Shown here: positions 11,993 to 57,868 of the stretch, piece by piece | How positions within the stretch are numbered: position 1 is the first letter of the stretch | Layout of the letters: each line of letters begins with the position of its first letter | Assembly (NCBI RefSeq): GCF_000733725.1 | Contig: NZ_JMQM01000001.1 | Location: 496,001-560,000, forward strand | DNA length: 64,000 nt | Direction of reading: 5' to 3' | Origin: Nitratireductor basaltis | GTDB taxonomy: Bacteria; Pseudomonadota; Alphaproteobacteria; Rhizobiales; Rhizobiaceae | Notes under the pieces: model-generated | What the model saw: only the letters and a program-made list of their open reading frames with translations | Databases searched by the model: none | What the model was told of the DNA's origin: nothing | Program-made: the position numbers and the translations under genes

Positions 11993-13836
11993 TCTGCGGC
12001 CTCCGCTTTCTCCATATCGATGAAGCCGCCGGACTGGCGCTGCCAGAGCGAGGCATAGATGCCGCCTTTGTCGATCAGCTCGTCATGGCTTCCTTCCTCA
12101 ACGATGCGGCCCTTGTCCATGACCACGAGCCGGTCCATGGCTGCGATGGTGGAGAGGCGGTGGGCGATGGCAATCACGGTCTTTCCTTCCATCAGGCGGT
12201 AGAGATTTTCCTGGATGGCCGCTTCGGCTTCCGAGTCCAGGGCCGAGGTTGCCTCATCCAGAAGCAGGATTGGGGCGTCTTTGAGGATGACGCGGGCAAT
12301 GGCGATGCGCTGGCGCTGGCCGCCGGAAAGCTTCACGCCGCGCTCGCCGACATGCGCATCGAGCCCCTTGCGTCCCTTGATGTCGGACAGTCCCCTGATG
12401 AAATCCAGCGCCTCAGCACGCCGCGCGGCTTCCAGCACCTGTTCATCCGTGGCATCGGGGCGGCCATAGCGGATATTGTCGCGCACGGAGCGGTGCAGGA
12501 GCGATGTGTCCTGCGTGACCATGCCGATCTTCGCGCGCAGACTGTCCTGCTTGACGGCGGAAATGTCGGTGCCATCGATCAGCAGGCGCCCGCCCTCAAG
12601 GTCGTAGAAGCGCAGGAGCAGGTTGACGAGTGTCGACTTGCCCGCGCCCGAGCGTCCGACAATGCCAACCTTTTCGCCGGGCCTGATATTGAGCGTCAGA
12701 TCCTCGATCACGCCGCCCGTCTTGCCATAGTGGAAGCGGATATTCTCAAACGAGATCGCGCCTTCGGGCACTTCAAGCTCCGTGGCATCCGGCGCGTCAT
12801 CCACCACGCGCGGCAGCGAGATGGAGCCGATGCCGTCCTGCACCGTGCCGATATTCTCGAACAGCGCGGTCAGCTCCCACATGATCCATTGCGACATGTT
12901 CCAAAGCCGCAGAACGAGGCCCAGCACCACCGCCACAGCGCCCACGCTGACGGCTCCCTTTATCCACAGCGTGATCGAGAGCGCGCCGACCGACAGCAGG
13001 CAGGCGGCATTCAGCGTGTAGAGCGCACCATAAAGGCCGGTGACAAAGCGGAACTGGCGATAGACCGTCTGCAGAAAGCCGTTCATGCCCTCGCGGGCGA
13101 AACTCGCCTCGCGCTTGGCATGGGAGAAGAGCTTCACCGTCTGGATATTGGTATAGGCATCGACGACGCGGCCCGTCATCAGCGAGCGCGCATCGGCCTG
13201 TTCTTCCGCCACTTGCCCAAGGCGCGGGATGAAATAGCGCATCAGGAGGATATAGCCGATGAGCCACAGCACCAGCGGCGCGGCCAGCCGCCAGTCGGCG
13301 GAAGCGGCCAGCACGATCATGCCGAGGAAATAGACCGCCACATAGTTCATCACGTCGATGAGCTTGATGACGCATTCGCGCACGGCCAGGGCCGTCTGCA
13401 TCAGCTTTGTCGCGATGCGGCCGGCAAATTCCTCCTGATAGAAGCTCATGGACTGCTTCAGGAGGTAGCGATGCACCTGCCAGCGAATGCGCATGGGATA
13501 GTTGCCCATGAGCACCTGATGCGTGACCAGCCCCTGCAATATCACCGCACCGGGCAGCACGATGCCCACGACCAGCGCCATGCCGAGCAGCTTCGGCCAT
13601 TCATTGGCAAGGAAAGTCTCGCGATCCTGCTCCGCCAGCCAGTCGACGATATTGCCGAGGAAGGAGAAGAGCCAAAGTTCGGCAATCGCGATGATCGCGA
13701 TCAGGATCGCCGACATCGCGATGAAGGGCCATGCGCCCTTGGTGAAATGCATGCAGAACGCGATGAAGGTGCGCGGCGGCTCTTCCGGTTCTTCCGCCGG
13801 GAAGGGGTTCAGCCGCTCTTCAAACCATCGAAACAT
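11989..13836 (-). CDS. ABC exporter half-transporter (first of pair)
   Basis: 615 residues with the same design as its downstream neighbour: a membrane domain of about six helices (FIAMSAILIAIIAIAELWLF is the first) and an ATPase domain with GRSGAGKST, LSGGQRQRIAIAR and ILLLDEATSALD. The ends of the two proteins are nearly alike (LWQRQSGGFIDM here, LWKRQSGGFLPI in the partner), which suggests an old tandem duplication. The pair lies in a 4-base-overlap operon. It probably encodes a heterodimeric exporter in the inner membrane; the substrate is unknown. Confidence 0.88.
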   Translation of the reverse strand: MFRWFEERLNPFPAEEPEEPPRTFIAFCMHFTKGAWPFIAMSAILIAIIAIAELWLFSFLGNIVDWLAEQDRETFLANEWPKLLGMALVVGIVLPGAVILQGLVTHQVLMGNYPMRIRWQVHRYLLKQSMSFYQEEFAGRIATKLMQTALAVRECVIKLIDVMNYVAVYFLGMIVLAASADWRLAAPLVLWLIGYILLMRYFIPRLGQVAEEQADARSLMTGRVVDAYTNIQTVKLFSHAKREASFAREGMNGFLQTVYRQFRFVTGLYGALYTLNAACLLSVGALSITLWIKGAVSVGAVAVVLGLVLRLWNMSQWIMWELTALFENIGTVQDGIGSISLPRVVDDAPDATELEVPEGAISFENIRFHYGKTGGVIEDLTLNIRPGEKVGIVGRSGAGKSTLVNLLLRFYDLEGGRLLIDGTDISAVKQDSLRAKIGMVTQDTSLLHRSVRDNIRYGRPDATDEQVLEAARRAEALDFIRGLSDIKGRKGLDAHVGERGVKLSGGQRQRIAIARVILKDAPILLLDEATSALDSEAEAAIQENLYRLMEGKTVIAIAHRLSTIAAMDRLVVMDKGRIVEEGSHDELIDKGGIYASLWQRQSGGFIDMEKAEAAE

Positions 13837-13891
13837 GTTTCGTCCTCAAAATGGACAGGGGAGGCGGATGCCTCGCCCTGCCTGTATAGTC

Positions 13892-14140
13892 TTATCGGTG
13901 GCCCTTGCCGGGGATATAGGCCGCTTTCAGGCCTTGTCTGCCTCGGCTCGCCTTTCCCGCGGCAGTTTCTGCAACGGGTTTCATGCCCTTTTGCGCAGAT
14001 TGCGGGTAGGGCATGGCTGGCGCCTTGGCCAGCCGTCCAGCCAGCGCTCCTGACAGGCCTGTGTCAGAAGTGTTTGCCTGCGGCGCGAAAGCCGTGATGG
14101 CCGCGGGCGCGGTCAGAGGTGTTCTGGTCTTGGATGACAT
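13892..14140 (-). CDS. Small Ala/Pro-rich hypothetical protein
   Basis: 82 residues, rich in Ala, Pro, Lys and Thr, ending in a basic tail (KAAYIPGKGHR). An AGGATT ribosome-site-like sequence precedes the ATG at 14140. No membrane segment or known motif is seen, and it may be largely disordered. It lies 55 bases upstream of the ABC exporter genes on the same strand and could be part of that transcript. Codon use is acceptable, but support is modest because the protein is short and unrecognised. Confidence 0.45.
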   Translation of the reverse strand: MSSKTRTPLTAPAAITAFAPQANTSDTGLSGALAGRLAKAPAMPYPQSAQKGMKPVAETAAGKASRGRQGLKAAYIPGKGHR

Positions 14141-14436
14141 GATCGAATCCTGATTGTCCGGAATTGTTGTTCCGGCGGATCCGCTCGTGCGTCTTTTCGA
14201 ATGTCAGTGAAAATGCGTGGAACGAAATCCGCCGTCAGGCAGCGCCCGGGAACCAGGGGCGCGCGCAGAACGGGATGGTCACAATTGCCTTGTCCATTTC
14301 TGCCTCCAGCGGTTTCAGTTCAACACGGATGGTCTTATAGACCCACAATTGCCCAAGCTCCAGCCAAAGTCTGGCCAAGGCGCAAAACAACCTGACGCTG
14401 TGGCCCAATGGCTACAGGTTGCGAAAGTAACAGTTC

Positions 14437-14898
14437 ATGAGCCTGCATATCGCCCTCTACCAGCCGGACATCCCCGGCAACACAGGCGCCATCCTGCGCC
14501 TTGCCGCCTGTCTCGGCATCACCGTCGACCTGATCGAGCCCGCCGGCTTCGACCTCTCCGACCGCTCGCTCAAACGCGCAGGCATGGACTACATCGCCAA
14601 AGCCGTCCTCACCCGCCATCCCTCATGGGAAGCCTTTTGCGAATGGCGCGAGGCCGAAAACCGCCGCCTCATCCTCTTCACCACCAAGGGTGCTGCCTCC
14701 TATTGCAACGTCGCCTACAAACAAAACGACGTGCTCCTGTTCGGCCGCGAATCCGCAGGCGTGCCCGAACATGTGCACGAACAGGCCGATCAGCGCGTGA
14801 CGATCCCCATGCAAGGCGAGGCGCGCAGCCTCAACCTGGCCATGTCGGCTGCAATGGGAGCAGGCGAAGCACTGCGGCAGTTGGGGGCGATGGGGTAG
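14437..14898 (+). CDS. trmL: tRNA (cytidine(34)-2'-O)-methyltransferase
   Basis: 153 residues, the normal size for the TrmL/SPOUT family. It starts LHIALYQPDIPGNTGAILR and carries the knot motifs LLFGRESAGVPE and VTIPM followed by RSLNLAMSAA, which bind S-adenosylmethionine. The enzyme methylates the 2'-OH of the wobble base of tRNA-Leu species. No clear ribosome site precedes the ATG. It is the last core gene before the AT-richer insert that carries the SLATT and reverse transcriptase genes. Confidence 0.93.
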   Translation: MSLHIALYQPDIPGNTGAILRLAACLGITVDLIEPAGFDLSDRSLKRAGMDYIAKAVLTRHPSWEAFCEWREAENRRLILFTTKGAASYCNVAYKQNDVLLFGRESAGVPEHVHEQADQRVTIPMQGEARSLNLAMSAAMGAGEALRQLGAMG

Positions 14899-15010
14899 GG
14901 GGGCGGTGGCAGAGGTTCAGGTTTAGATAGGAGGTGTGTGGATCGCGTTCTGCAGTGTTCGAACGGACAGAGTAGTGTTCAATGGCACTAAACGACCCCA
15001 GCCCAGTCGC

Positions 15011-15240
15011 TCGGTATGCTTTGCATGCAACCAAAACCGGCCAGCGACGCCGAGAAATTGAGTTCCTTGCGGCGAGATTGTAAGGCATGGGGCGTTATGG
15101 TTGCATGCTCTACGCAGGATCAACTTGCGTTTCTCTATCGTATGCGTTTTATTTCGCCCGGGTGCGGACGGAGCGAGTGAAAGCTCGCTGGCTCGGAAGG
15201 GTCACTGTTACTAAATAGGGCTTCGGCCTTGGCTTTTGCT
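15011..15240 (+). ncRNA. Candidate structured RNA of the SLATT-RT operon
   Basis: The 405-base gap between trmL and the SLATT gene has no credible protein gene but is rich in paired segments. GCATGCAACCA at 15023-15033 is perfectly complementary to TGGTTGCATGC at 15098-15108, an 11-bp closing stem. Inside it CGCCG (15048-15052) pairs with CGGCG (15070-15074). Downstream are AGCGAG/CTCGCT (15172-15177 with 15184-15189) and a TTCG-capped hairpin at 15217-15230. Several defence-associated reverse transcriptases use an RNA encoded next to the gene. The ends and the transcription of this one are unproven. Confidence 0.45.
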
Positions 15241-15303
15241 GCATTCGGCAACGAGTGCTTAGTTATCCATGAGAAATTGCGTCCGTACCTTTATGGAGCT
15301 TTG

Positions 15304-15894
15304 ATGTCCGAGTTGGATTCTCAGAAAAACCAGGTCCAGGACAAGATATGGATTACTTCACGTGTTCGGATGACAGCTGAAAGGCGCCTTCTCCAGTATA
15401 ATAACTGGTCTCTATTTCTTCTTGCATATTACTCTCTGTTCACCGTCGTACTCTCGGTTTTTTCTGAATACTTCAAGTCCTTTTATCCATATTTTGATGG
15501 GATAACAATCGTCGCTACGGTGGCCGTCTTGGTCGCTTCTCTTGTCGTTGGTGGGTTCAGGTTTGAAAGGACCGCTTCGCTATATCGCGATTGCTATCTT
15601 TCATTGCAACGACTTTACGAAGACGAGGGTGACGGGAGGGCGAAACAGAAAGACTACGCTGACATCTTGGTTGTGTGCCCCAATCATTCAAACGGCGACT
15701 ACCATGATTTCCTTTTCAACCACATCGTCCTCGAAGGCAAAGAGGTCACGAGCAACGGCAAGCAGCTACATTGCACGAAATACATGAAGCTTTCTTACGT
15801 CTGGAGGCGGGTTGTCTTTTGCGCTCTGATTGGAACGCTCGTTATGATCCCCCTCGCGTTCGCGGCAGGACCCTTCGTGGCCAAGTGTTCATGA
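15304..15894 (+). CDS. SLATT-like membrane effector protein
   Basis: 196 residues from the ATG at 15304, which has GGAG 5 bases upstream; a TTG-started frame from 15229 is possible but poorer. Helices at about 35-53 and 66-85 are separated by a short linker and followed by a soluble, charged region, with a third hydrophobic stretch at about 172-193. The order cytosolic helix, two membrane helices, cytosolic helical tail (FERTASLYRDCYLSLQRLYE) fits the SLATT family, which are predicted pore-forming effectors of defence systems. It overlaps the reverse transcriptase start by 4 bases (ATGA), so the two are co-translated. AT-rich codon use sets it apart from the neighbouring core genes. Confidence 0.7.
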   Translation: MSELDSQKNQVQDKIWITSRVRMTAERRLLQYNNWSLFLLAYYSLFTVVLSVFSEYFKSFYPYFDGITIVATVAVLVASLVVGGFRFERTASLYRDCYLSLQRLYEDEGDGRAKQKDYADILVVCPNHSNGDYHDFLFNHIVLEGKEVTSNGKQLHCTKYMKLSYVWRRVVFCALIGTLVMIPLAFAAGPFVAKCS

Positions 15895-17210
15895 CCGCTC
15901 GCCAGCATTTCGATCGCCAATTTACCTTTGATAATCTCAGGGAAATCTTCGAGGAGCGGATCGCTCATACCGCAACAACCGGCAAAGATGGAGTATCGCC
16001 CGACGCCTTTCAGAGGATGATTGATTCGGAGCTTTCCCTTACGCTCGCCAAAGTTCGAAATGGAACGTATCGTTTCACAACTTATCGCCAGAAGCTTGTA
16101 CTCAAGGGTGTCGGAAAAGCCCCGCGAGAGATCTCCATTGCGACTGTGCGTGATAGGATTGTTTTGCGAGCAATCAACGATGTCTTGATCGAGTCTTTCT
16201 CGGATAAGCGTCAGGCTGCACCACACCACTACATCTATGAGATTTCAGACCTGATCCGACCGCTAGGTGATGACTATTCTTTCGTGCAAATTGATGTTCA
16301 AGACTTTTACCCCAGCATCATCCATCAACTGCTTATGCAGCGGGTTCGATCACGTGTCCGAACCCGTGATTTGCTTACTTTGATCGAGACAGCAATCCAA
16401 ACTCCAACCGGTGCTCCGTCGCCACAAGGGGCAGTGAGGGGCGTTCCACAAGGATTGAGTATCTCTAACATCTTGTCGGCGATTTACATGATCCGCTTCG
16501 ATGAGATGATGCAATCGCGTTATTCGTATTTTCGGTACGTTGATGACATTATCGTGGTCTGTAAGACGGATAGCGCGGAGAAGACATTTGCGTTCATCGC
16601 GAAGCAGCTAAACAAGATCGGTTTGCAGTGTCATCCGCCAACTGAGGGCAGCAAAAGCAAGATCGTACCGCTGAATACAGGTGTCAATTATCTCGGATAT
16701 TACGTCAAACCGGATATCATTTCCGTCCGAACTTCGTCATACCGCCGCATGATGGATACCATAATGGGTGTTCTGACAGCAGCCAAGCATACGACAAACA
16801 ACAAGAAGATCCTACGACGCCTAAACATCAAAATAACAGGCTGTATTTTCGATCAAAAAAGGCGAGGATGGATGTTTTTCTTTTCGATGACGACGGACAT
16901 CAAACAACTTCGACGTCTCGACAAGTTCGTTGAGCGAGCATGGCAACGCGCGGGCATGCAACAGTTTGGCCGACCTAAAACATTTGTGAAGACTTATTAC
17001 GAAATTCGATATCATTTGGACGAGACAAAGTACATTCCCCGCTTCGATGAGTACACCAAGGCGCAGAAGGCTTCGCTTATTGCTGACATGATGGGTCGTG
17101 AGGCGGCAGAGGTAATGACTTGGCCGCAAGATCGGATGGATCGCGCATTTGCGAAGATTGTACGCAAAGAAGTTGCGCAACTGGAAAATGACATTACACC
17201 GTTCAGCTAG
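15891..17210 (+). CDS. Reverse transcriptase (defence-associated type likely)
   Basis: 439 residues from the ATG at 15891; the longer frame from 15771 lies inside the SLATT gene. Palm motifs are complete: FVQIDVQDFYPSI with catalytic D135, GVPQGLSISNIL (186 on), and YVDD at 216-219, followed by VNYLGYYVK. There is no group II intron maturase, endonuclease or integrase domain, and the roughly 160-residue C-terminal part is basic and unrecognised. The pairing with a SLATT protein, the low GC and the lack of mobility genes point to a defence-associated reverse transcriptase rather than a retrotransposon. The exact DRT/UG class cannot be fixed by eye. A retron is less likely because the typical retron VTG-like region is not evident. 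Confidence 0.85.
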   Translation: MTARQHFDRQFTFDNLREIFEERIAHTATTGKDGVSPDAFQRMIDSELSLTLAKVRNGTYRFTTYRQKLVLKGVGKAPREISIATVRDRIVLRAINDVLIESFSDKRQAAPHHYIYEISDLIRPLGDDYSFVQIDVQDFYPSIIHQLLMQRVRSRVRTRDLLTLIETAIQTPTGAPSPQGAVRGVPQGLSISNILSAIYMIRFDEMMQSRYSYFRYVDDIIVVCKTDSAEKTFAFIAKQLNKIGLQCHPPTEGSKSKIVPLNTGVNYLGYYVKPDIISVRTSSYRRMMDTIMGVLTAAKHTTNNKKILRRLNIKITGCIFDQKRRGWMFFFSMTTDIKQLRRLDKFVERAWQRAGMQQFGRPKTFVKTYYEIRYHLDETKYIPRFDEYTKAQKASLIADMMGREAAEVMTWPQDRMDRAFAKIVRKEVAQLENDITPFS

Positions 17211-17312
17211 GTGGTCGCTTCGCCACGGGTGAGGATAGAGCCACAGCCAATGTTCTGATCTTCTTGGATCGCCCCGAGCGGAAGGTCCGGGATCAGATCA
17301 CTCGATACACGA

Positions 17313-17336
17313 CGGTTACCCAAATAACCGCTTTTT
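17313..17336 (+). terminator. Intrinsic terminator after the RT gene
   Basis: CGGTTA (17313-17318) pairs with TAACCG (17325-17330) around a CCCAAA loop and is followed by CTTTTT. It lies 103 bases past the reverse transcriptase stop and would end the SLATT-RT transcript. Confidence 0.6.
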
Positions 17337-17425
17337 CACATCCGGATCCAGAACCGCACCGTCTTCAAACCACCCCAATTCGCCGCAACTGCGTCCGAAC
17401 CAAGTCTCAATCTCTGCATAGCCGA

Positions 17426-17456
17426 CCGGCGCCCGTCACCAAGCGCCGGCCTTTTT
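17426..17456 (+). terminator. Strong intrinsic terminator
   Basis: CCGGCGC (17426-17432) pairs with GCGCCGG (17443-17449), followed by CC and five T. It acts on plus-strand transcripts and lies 11 bases before the end of the convergent heme-binding gene. It may be the original terminator of the core transcript that preceded the insert. Confidence 0.75.
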
Positions 17457-17466
17457 CCGTTCCGCC

Positions 17467-17964
17467 TTACTCAGGCACTTCAGCTCCAATCGCCTTCAGC
17501 CCCTCGATCGCGCATTCGGCGTCGATATCGCCTGATGGTGCGCCGCCGACGCCTATGCCGCCGACCAGTTGGCCGTTGATGCGGATGGGCAGGCCTCCGG
17601 CGAGGATGACGAGGCGGGGGTCCATGTCGCGCAGGCCGGCAAGCGGCGGGTTGCTGGCAATGCCTCCTGCCAGCGCGCCGGAGGGGCGACCCATCGACGC
17701 GGAGGTGAAGGCCTTGCCGGTGGCCGAACCATTGGTGTGCGGGCCTGCACCATCGCCATGGATCAGCACTGAAGTTTCGCCGCTGCGTGCCACGATGGCG
17801 GTGGTCACGGCGAAGCCCTTCGCCTTGCAGCTTTCAACGGCGGCATTGGCGGCCTCGACGGCCTTGGCGACGGGCAGATAGGCGGCGGTGGGCAGTTCAT
17901 CGGCCTGGGTAACAGTGCCTAGCGATACCAATGCGGCAGCGGCTGCGAGGATGATCTTCGTCAT
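17467..17964 (-). CDS. Secreted GlcG/HbpS heme-binding family protein
   Basis: 165 residues with a signal peptide (MTKIILAAAAALVSLGTVTQA, cleavage after the TQA region). The mature part has the GlcG/HbpS fold signature: a VEAANAAVESCKAKGF helix, GKAFTSASMGRPS, LVILAGGLPI and GQLVGGIGVGGAPSGDIDAE. Family members bind heme or small molecules and are exported to the periplasm. It stands alone near hemF, which is compatible with a heme-related role, but the ligand is inferred only from the family. Confidence 0.8.
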   Translation of the reverse strand: MTKIILAAAAALVSLGTVTQADELPTAAYLPVAKAVEAANAAVESCKAKGFAVTTAIVARSGETSVLIHGDGAGPHTNGSATGKAFTSASMGRPSGALAGGIASNPPLAGLRDMDPRLVILAGGLPIRINGQLVGGIGVGGAPSGDIDAECAIEGLKAIGAEVPE

Positions 17965-18116
17965 GAAATGAACCTTTGAAACATGGGTTGTAAAACCCGC
18001 ACAGGCTGCCAGGAAAATGCGGCGTATTTCTGGTTCAAGTCTATGATTTTACATAATTATTATGGGTTAGCCGCGTTCGCGCGCGCTTCACATCCCTGAA
18101 GATGGGGAAAGCTGCC

Positions 18117-18374
18117 TCAATCCGCCGTCGGCAGCCTGCGCATGGTGAACTCGATGACGTCGCCGGGGCGTTCGCACCAGCTTTCTATTTCGGTCCAGTA
18201 GGCTTGGCGGGGCCAGCGTTCCAGCCATTCGCGCGCCTTGGCGCGGGCCTGGGCGCGCGGGAGTTCGAAGGTCTCGCGCAGGAAGCCGTCCTTGGGCATT
18301 CGAACCGGCTCGGCGCGCCTCTTGTCGAGGCTGCGCTTCAACCCGTCCAGCGGTGGTTTGGCGGGTATGCGCAC
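18117..18374 (-). CDS. Small conserved hypothetical protein
   Basis: 85 residues starting at a GTG (18374) with AAGGAG 7 bases upstream. It is a soluble, basic and Trp-rich protein ([25 protein letters not shown]) with no recognised domain. It is transcribed divergently from hemF, with about 140 bases between starts. The good ribosome site and normal codon use support a real gene. Its family is not recognised. Confidence 0.6.
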
Positions 18375-18513
18375 GAAAGAACTCCTTGACCCGTCTGCTT
18401 TTCAGTTTAGGTCTCGGCGGGAAAATTTGCGAGTCATTTGTGAGACTTCCCGGACTGTCCTTGACCATATTGTCATGACGCACGACCCTTGTCCGGGAAC
18501 AGGATGGACCATC

Positions 18514-28055: not shown

Positions 28056-28105
28056 TCGAGGTACTTTGCATCTCGGCCGGTAGGCCGAGATGCAAAGTAC
28101 CTCGA
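28056..28105. repeat. 23-bp perfect inverted repeat (long hairpin)
   Basis: Positions 28056-28078 are perfectly complementary to 28083-28105 around a GGTA loop; the arms contain GTACTTTGCATCTCGGCC. No T-run follows, so it is not an ordinary terminator. It sits in the AT-richer gap 27893-28406, which has no convincing gene. It might be a small mobile palindrome or the 5' end of an RNA from the adjacent promoter. Confidence 0.85.
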
Positions 28106-57316: not shown

Positions 57317-57364
57317 CCCCCCTCTGCCCTGCCGGGCATCTCCCCCTCAAGGGGGGAGATTGGC
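57317..57364. repeat. Palindromic repeat unit, inverted copy
   Basis: ACACCCCCCTCTGCCCTGCC then GGGCATCTCCCCCTCAAGGGGGGAG is the palindromic unit in the opposite orientation to the tandem array that follows. It is 118 bases after the uvrB stop. Confidence 0.85.
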
Positions 57365-57416
57365 TAGGAGTCACGCCCTGCTTACCCAATAAAGTATGGC
57401 GCCGACATAAACGCGA

Positions 57417-57868
57417 TTGATCTCCCCCCTTGAGGGGGAGATGTCCGGCAGGACAGAGGGGGGTGCGAAAGGGCGCGAACATATCCCCACCTATCCGGAA
57501 GACCAGCAGCAGGAAGCCCATCATCTCCCGCAACCAGCCAGGCGCAGCATCCACACCGCCAATCTCCCCCCTTGTGGGGGAGATGTCCGGCAGGACAGAG
57601 GGGGGCGCGAAAGGGTGCTACCATATCCGCACCTATCCGGAAGATCAGCAGCAGGACGCCCATCATCTCCCGCAACCGGCCAAGCGCAGCATCAACACCT
57701 GCCAATCTCCCCCTTGAGGGGGAGATGTCCGGCAGGACAGAGGGGGTCAGCAGGAAGCCCATCATCTCCCGCAACCAGCTAGGCGCAGCATCCACACCGC
57801 CAATCTCCCCCCTTGTGGGGGAGATGTCCGGCAGGACAGAGGGGGGCGCGAAGGGGCGCTTGCCTCTC
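57417..57868. repeat. Tandem array of a palindrome-bearing repeat, about 3.3 units
   Basis: The unit starts at TCTCCCCCCTTG at 57421, 57563, 57706 and 57804, so periods are 142, 143 and 98 bases. Each unit carries the palindrome (TCTCCCCCC...GGGGGAGATG, then TCCGGCAGGACAGAGGGG) plus a spacer with CAGCAGGAAGCCCATCATC. The third unit has lost about 45 bases. It is a tandem duplication of a dispersed rhizobial-type palindrome, not a CRISPR. Confidence 0.9.

What the first reader, a model, noticed from the sequence alone, without database searches (positions are those of the whole stretch)
15011..15240. Structured upstream RNA candidate for the RT operon
An 11-bp perfect stem (15023-15033 with 15098-15108) encloses an inner hairpin, followed by a 6-bp hairpin and a TTCG-capped one, all between trmL and the SLATT gene where no protein gene is credible. 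Several defence RTs use an RNA encoded upstream as template. The stem is too long to be readily explained by chance in a 400-base gap.
Basis: partly seen in the sequence, partly recalled or inferred. Interest (0 to 1): 0.75.

Follow-up and report, generated by a model that had tools for sequence, protein, structure and literature searches.

The report
DRT10 template RNA, found downstream

Summary
The 11-bp stem (15023-15033/15098-15108) is in the sequence, but it is not the RNA. The operon is SLATT_5 (ATG at 15304) plus a UG17 reverse transcriptase (15891-17210), i.e. DRT10, for which a ~137-nt template RNA upstream of SLATT is published. In 14 distinct homologues 28 of 36 pairs show changes on both sides with pairing kept. 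The stem lies upstream of a promoter-like TTG found 33-36 nt before the RNA in 12 of 13 loci, so it is probably not in the transcript. The loop fits the DRT10 A-B-A' rule (AG-TTATCCATG-AG), predicting an 11-nt cDNA repeat CATGGATAACT; the RT ends in a serine, the priming position.

The parts
15160..15291 (+). DRT10-type ncRNA (132 nt modelled; true ends not measured): closing helix P1 plus hairpins P2, P3, P4, P5, SL5 and template loop
   Evidence: R1 110.9 bits, E 3.9e-26 (the window is one of the 11 training rows); covariation; nearest relative, not in the model, 109.3 bits and 94.7% identical with all four paired-site changes keeping the pair
15160..15170 (+). P1 closing helix, 5' strand (pairs with 15280-15290)
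15280..15290 (+). P1 closing helix, 3' strand
15172..15189 (+).
   Evidence: all five modelled pairs show double changes in A4; G-C to A-U at 15173/15188 in the nearest relative
15190..15203 (+). P3 hairpin
   Evidence: 100% of cells paired, 3 of 5 pairs with double changes in A4
15217..15230 (+).
   Evidence: 4 of 5 pairs with double changes in A4
15231..15240 (+). P5, short 3-bp hairpin
   Evidence: 2 of 3 pairs with double changes in A4, none in A3; the weakest of the helices
15241..15258 (+). SL5-like hairpin directly before the template loop (template boundary by analogy with Eco3DRT10)
   Evidence: 6 of 7 pairs with double changes in A4; role inferred from PMC12632851
15259..15279 (+). 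template loop; predicted A-B = 15261-15271 (AG + TTATCCATG), A' = 15272-15273 (AG)
   Evidence: A-A' test over 12 loops, 0 of 5000 shuffles; identical in the nearest relative
15125..15153 (+). promoter-like element (TTGCGT, 16-17 nt, TTTTAT/TTTATT) that would start the transcript near 15160
   Evidence: TTG 33-36 nt before the RNA in 12 of 13 loci; the generic scan did not report it
15304..15894 (+). SLATT_5 membrane effector gene (ATG start; a TTG at 15229 is possible but unlikely)
   Evidence: PF18160 E 1.1e-46, PADLOC RTasSLATT E 4e-67; both run on the 15229 frame
15891..17210 (+). UG17 (DRT10) reverse transcriptase, YVDD intact, C-terminal ...DITPFS
   Evidence: PADLOC RT_UG17 E 2e-150

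Best explanation
The locus is a DRT10 anti-phage system: ncRNA (about 15160-15291) - SLATT_5 - UG17 RT. Shown here: gene identities, the conserved and covarying RNA fold, the loop pattern, the terminal serine. Inferred from the published Eco3DRT10 work: the RNA is transcribed from about 15160, binds the RT, and its 21-nt loop is copied; the RT primes on its last residue (Ser439), copies A-B up to the SL5 boundary, lets the cDNA 3' end re-anneal at A', and repeats, giving single-stranded tandem-repeat DNA with unit 5'-CATGGATAACT-3'. Tang et al. propose, without proof, that this DNA controls the membrane SLATT effector. The 11-bp stem plays no part.
For: UG17 and SLATT models. Conserved RNA in the same place upstream of SLATT; A3 (11 loci): 36 pairs, 15 with double changes, 95.2% of cells paired, 0 of 500 shuffles on each of five measures, slid controls 30-47% paired. 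A4 (18 matches in the 70 loci given, 14 distinct): 28 of 36 pairs with double changes. Nearest relative found by the model though not in it: 7 of 132 positions differ, 4 at paired sites, all keeping the pair, including one G-C to A-U; template loop 21 of 21 identical. Non-coding DNA similarity starts exactly at 15160 in L002, L008 and L018 (3 of 6 loci compared). A-A' identity at a fixed place: summed length 34 against 15.6 (sd 3.6), 0 of 5000. C-terminal Ser in 49 of 59 distinct RTs, the window included (many are close variants of one another). Published DRT10: 137-nt RNA upstream of SLATT, A-B-A', SL5, terminal-Ser priming.
Against: No expression, binding or cDNA data exist here for this locus. 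A/A' in the window is only 2 nt (4 in some relatives; 2 also in Eco1 and Eco2), so the repeat register is less certain than the fold. The offset and period range of the A-A' test were chosen after looking at the loops, one of 13 distinct loops (L052) was left out of it, and a looser test on all 13 loops with any period of 5 or more was not significant (704 of 2000 shuffles as high). The RNA model reaches only some DRT10 loci: 52 of 70 searched had no match at E<=1 (at least eight of them, e.g. L019, L038, L042, hold too little DNA upstream of the RT to contain it). With filters off on 9 loci, weak matches (E 0.0003 to 0.8) lie at about the right place in L026, L065, L052, L037, L024, L067, L025 and L035, among other chance-level ones, but none in the Eco3-like L054. 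The window has one more small hairpin than the four reported for Eco3. Rows of A3 and A4 are related, so cells are not independent events.
Confidence: 0.9

Rival explanations
1. The RNA 15160-15291 is a cis-acting leader (attenuator or similar) that controls the SLATT-RT operon and is not the RT template.
For: It lies 12 nt upstream of the SLATT ATG on the same strand, and two of the four terminator-like hits fall inside it.
Against: Its place, size, arms and loop pattern match the experimentally shown DRT10 template RNA; the template loop is unchanged in the nearest relative (21 of 21).
Confidence: 0.05
2. The 11-bp stem is a separate functional element (second RNA, operator, or attachment site of the cassette).
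For: 11 perfect pairs, 2 of 300 shuffles; it sits near the left edge of the inserted cassette; 34 of 38 bases over 15018-15054, which include the 5' arm, match a Curtobacterium plasmid (E 5e-3).
Against: Not conserved in the nearest relative or in 12 other loci; only chance-level further matches in the own genome; no direct repeat of 9 nt or more between the two flanks; no RT or SLATT gene is annotated within 1.5 kb of the Curtobacterium match, where the arm itself is not intact.
Confidence: 0.05
3. The stem is a chance or leftover sequence with no function.
For: 5 of 158 tiles of the window hold such a stem; no conservation.
Against: Rare in shuffles of this one gap (2 of 300).
Confidence: 0.9
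4. The system is decayed and no longer works.
For: A-A' match of only 2 nt.
Against: Both ORFs open, YVDD and terminal Ser kept; in the one close pair available the RNA differs less than the SLATT gene, with compensation.
Confidence: 0.05

Closest known systems
DRT10 (UG17 RT + SLATT + ncRNA; Eco1/2/3DRT10, PMC12632851)
   Same: UG17 RT, adjacent SLATT, ncRNA directly upstream of SLATT, closing helix with small arms, hairpin just before the template loop, A-B-A' pattern, YVDD, C-terminal Ser
   Different: R1 does not find the Eco3-like RNA of L054; five small hairpins instead of four; A of 2 nt and 11-nt unit (Eco3: 4 nt and 9 nt); the closest named relatives are Mesorhizobium, Phyllobacterium and Rhizobium rather than E. 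coli
DRT9 ncRNA (SenDRT9)
   Same: Reported by Tang et al. to resemble DRT10 RNAs in structure; protein-primed
   Different: DRT9 has a poly-U template and makes homopolymer (as cited); the RT here matches Drt9 far less well than UG17 (2.9e-17 against 2e-150)
DRT3 ncRNA (DRT3a/DRT3b)
   Same: Template loop placed analogously (PMC13174585 passages)
   Different: Two RTs and an ACACAC template; the operon here has one RT, UG17
Telomerase RNA
   Same: Template plus alignment segment, boundary element (analogy made by Tang et al.)
   Different: No homology tested here

Membership tests
DRT10 | UG17 reverse transcriptase with intact YVDD | tested here: met
   PDLC03754 E 2e-150, profile positions 1-429 of 429; YVDD
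DRT10 | Adjacent SLATT gene | tested here: met
   SLATT_5 E 1.1e-46, overlapping the RT start by 4 nt
DRT10 | Structured ncRNA of about 137 nt directly upstream of SLATT | tested here: met
   132 nt at 15160-15291, 12 nt before the ATG; covariation. Existence of the transcript itself not testable
DRT10 | Central stem with four small stem-loops | tested here: inconclusive
   Central closing stem met; five small hairpins, one of them only 3 bp. The authors' covariance model was not available
DRT10 | A-B-A' pattern in a loop just after SL5 | tested here: met
   AG-TTATCCATG-AG; test over 12 loops 0 of 5000 at a place chosen after inspection, unrestricted test not significant; window A only 2 nt
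DRT10 | Priming residue (Ser or Tyr) at the RT C-terminus | tested here: met
   Last residue Ser439; priming itself not testable
DRT10 | RNA bound by the RT; tandem-repeat cDNA; phage defence | not testable with these tools
   needs experiment
Rfam families | match to any of 4227 models at gathering score | tested here: not met
   0 matches in the window

The most novel reading that the evidence does not exclude
The alphaproteobacterial DRT10 RNAs may form a structural subclass of their own: one extra arm, a conserved unpaired GGTTAYNAAG-like stretch between P3 and P4 (read by eye from A3), and a template that starts AG or AA two nucleotides after SL5 and yields mostly 10-11-nt repeats from A segments as short as 2 nt.
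Probability: 0.35. Interest if true: 0.35.

Novelty: new member of a known kind. Interest (0 to 1): 0.25.

Why it matters
It corrects where the template RNA is, so that any test would be aimed at 15160-15291 and not at 15011-15118. It also gives a concrete, falsifiable cDNA prediction (11-nt repeat) for a DRT10 system outside Escherichia coli, useful for comparing how short the A-A' match can be in this telomerase-like mechanism.

Tried and rejected
Rejected: the 11-bp stem as the RNA core. Rejected: a helix at 15205-15209/15214-15218 that is in the window's own minimum-energy fold but that several homologues do not keep (read by eye from A3; the RNAalifold consensus does not include it). Rfam: no hit at gathering score. 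Similarity of 14899-15158 elsewhere: own genome only itself plus 8 matches at E 0.8 to 5.2; plasmids one match, 34 of 38 bases over 15018-15054, E 5e-3, in a Curtobacterium plasmid between annotated genes with no RT or SLATT annotated in the 3 kb fetched, left unexplained; phages none. Any-period A-B-A' test: not significant. The generic promoter scan found nothing. Papers: trmL with defense island, 0 papers; UG17 with Rhizob, 0 papers; the main text of Tang et al. holds no Rhizob or Alphaproteo (supplements could not be read, so their tables may list these genomes). No structure was predicted (not needed for the question). Rows left out: L052 from the A-A' test; the loci L001 and L013 (no upstream DNA), L014, L015, L029, L030 (same places as L002, L008, L018, L019) and L077-L091 (weak RT matches); the loci above L076, and identical RTs were counted once. 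In one search a few of the 59 (e.g. L033, L036, L054, L055) match the window RT only to residue 374-406, so their last residue may not be the homologous one.

Full report
What the locus is. The operon downstream of the finding is SLATT_5 (PF18160, E 1.1e-46) followed by an RT whose best PADLOC model is RT_UG17 over profile positions 1-429 of 429 (E 2e-150). UG17 plus SLATT is DRT10. Tang et al. (PMC12632851, preprint; I read the abstract, results, discussion and part 1 of 2 of the figure legends) showed that DRT10 uses a ~137-nt RNA encoded directly upstream of SLATT, that its loop carries an A-B-A' pattern after a hairpin called SL5, and that the RT primes on a C-terminal serine (Eco3; likely a tyrosine in Eco1) and makes tandem-repeat DNA. 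The SLATT_5-UG17 association itself was reported earlier (PMC8934634, passages).

The stem. It is rare in shuffles of this gap (2 of 300) but found in 5 of 158 tiles of the window, and the region 15011-15118 does not fold better than shuffles (z -1.18) (positions). The whole stretch 14980-15304 does not either (z -1.34, 12 of 100).

The RNA. Reading the upstream regions of related loci side by side (loci) showed that conservation starts at about 15160, not at 15023. Of six loci compared by BLASTN, non-coding similarity begins exactly at 15160 in three (L002, L008, L018); L003 matches from 15199, L004 has no match there, and L001 lacks the region. RNAalifold on 11 aligned sequences (A3) gave, without a structure from me, one closing helix and five hairpins: 36 pairs, 15 with both sides changed. 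Counting on A3: 95.2% of cells paired, 0 of 500 shuffles as high on any of five measures; slid versions pair 30-47%. A covariance model R1 from A3 found 18 matches at E<=1 in 70 loci, including two distant ones not in A3 (L031 E 8.1e-12, L017 E 1.1e-10) and a weak one (L052, E 0.039). Of the 52 loci without a match at least eight hold too little DNA upstream of the RT (RT start within 621 bases of the locus start). On the 14 distinct rows 28 of 36 pairs have double changes, again 0 of 500; that alignment is fitted to the structure and so leans towards it. The window match scores 110.9 bits; the only other match in the window at E<=10 is at chance level (9.2 bits). In whole genomes R1 hits once in the own genome and in 2 of 151 genomes searched with strict filters (own and G322, which also has a UG17 RT). 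Of 9 genomes with a UG17 RT, 7 have a match; the two without (G1035, G1442) have RTs 33% and 30% identical to the window's, the lowest of the nine.

The decisive comparison. One of those matches is in G172, the closest relative (RT 86-87% identical over residues 78-439), on another contig (L125), and was not used for the model. It aligns to the window without a gap over 1051 bp from 15069 on. Identity: 69.2% upstream (15069-15159), 94.7% in the RNA, 100% in the template loop, 78.5% in SLATT. Of 7 changes in the RNA 4 are at paired sites and all keep the pair; two of them are one compensatory change, G15173-C15188 to A-U in P2. In 12 further loci the 140 nt upstream of the RNA hold no perfect stem over 8 bp. 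No similarity to the window is found upstream of 15069 (window 13001-18500 given), so the shared cassette's left edge probably lies near there, and the stem straddles it.

Transcription. A TTG lies 33-36 nt before the first base of the RNA in 12 of 13 loci (L017 lacks it), and the summed score of the best promoter-like hexamers is 99 against 82.9 (sd 3.7), 0 of 2000 mononucleotide shuffles. In the window this is TTGCGT at 15125 with TTTTAT/TTTATT at 15147-15153. The transcript would thus start at about 15160 and exclude the stem. The loci are related, the place was noticed before it was counted, and the simple promoter scan reports nothing, so this is suggestive only.

Template. With A fixed two bases after SL5 and periods of 8-12, the summed A length over 12 loops is 34 against 15.6 (sd 3.6), 0 of 5000 shuffles; the other offsets tried (0-7) give 9-22. 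The place was chosen after looking, L052 (whose A would start at the first loop base) was left out, and an unrestricted test on 13 loops is not significant. Strong cases are AGTT-GCTTTG-AGTT (L004, L011), AGTT-GTCCTTG-AGTT (L016) and AATC-...-AATC (L009, L010), where A and A' differ from the rest together. Weak cases are L031 (1 nt) and the 2-nt ones, the window's AG-TTATCCATG-AG among them. Predicted cDNA unit: CATGGATAACT. As a check that the fetched set reaches the known systems, the Eco3 template pattern, derived from the paper, occurs in L054, upstream of its RT.

Protein. YVDD is intact and the RT ends in Ser; of 59 distinct RTs 49 end in Ser, 6 in Tyr and 4 in other residues.

Insertion. 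In a genome of the same genus (G1476) the trmL and HbpS-like matches are 49 bp apart, against 2586 bp between the same points in the window (14881-17466): the DRT10 cassette looks like an insertion between them. trmL is matched in 16 of 16 genomes of the genus, the HbpS side in only 2 of 16 (own and G1476), so the far neighbour is itself variable and the inference rests on one genome. No direct repeat of 9 nt or more joins the flanks. DRT10 is uncommon here: 6 of 394 family genomes at E<=1e-40, own included.

Verdict. The finding points at a real RNA but names the wrong bases for its core. The RNA is a new member of the DRT10 ncRNA kind. Mechanism steps beyond sequence are inferred from the published homologue.

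Noticed in passing
15112-15130: A 7-bp inverted repeat (ACGCAGG/CTTGCGT) overlaps the promoter-like TTG; L002 has an 8-bp one (AAGATGCA) at about the same place. It could be an operator or a terminator of upstream transcription.
   Followed up: partly
15018-15054: 34 of 38 bases match a stretch without annotated gene in a Curtobacterium plasmid (NZ_CP126264.1, E 5e-3), near a sugar transferase gene; it covers the stem's 5' arm with a mismatch and a gap.
   Followed up: partly
L125 and L013 (genome G172): The closest relative's RT gene is split over two contigs at about residue 77-78, with sequence unlike the window after the break in L125; an insertion element is possible but was not tested.
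   Followed up: no
L021, L022: In these distant UG17 loci the SLATT-like match lies downstream of the RT instead of upstream, and the RNA model finds nothing.
   Followed up: no
L027 (Rhodococcus plasmid): UG17-like RT with no SLATT gene annotated in the stretch fetched and no match to the window's SLATT at E<=1e-3.
   Followed up: no
28056-28105 and 57337-57443: Perfect inverted repeats of 23 and 24 bp, much longer than the finding's stem.
   Followed up: no
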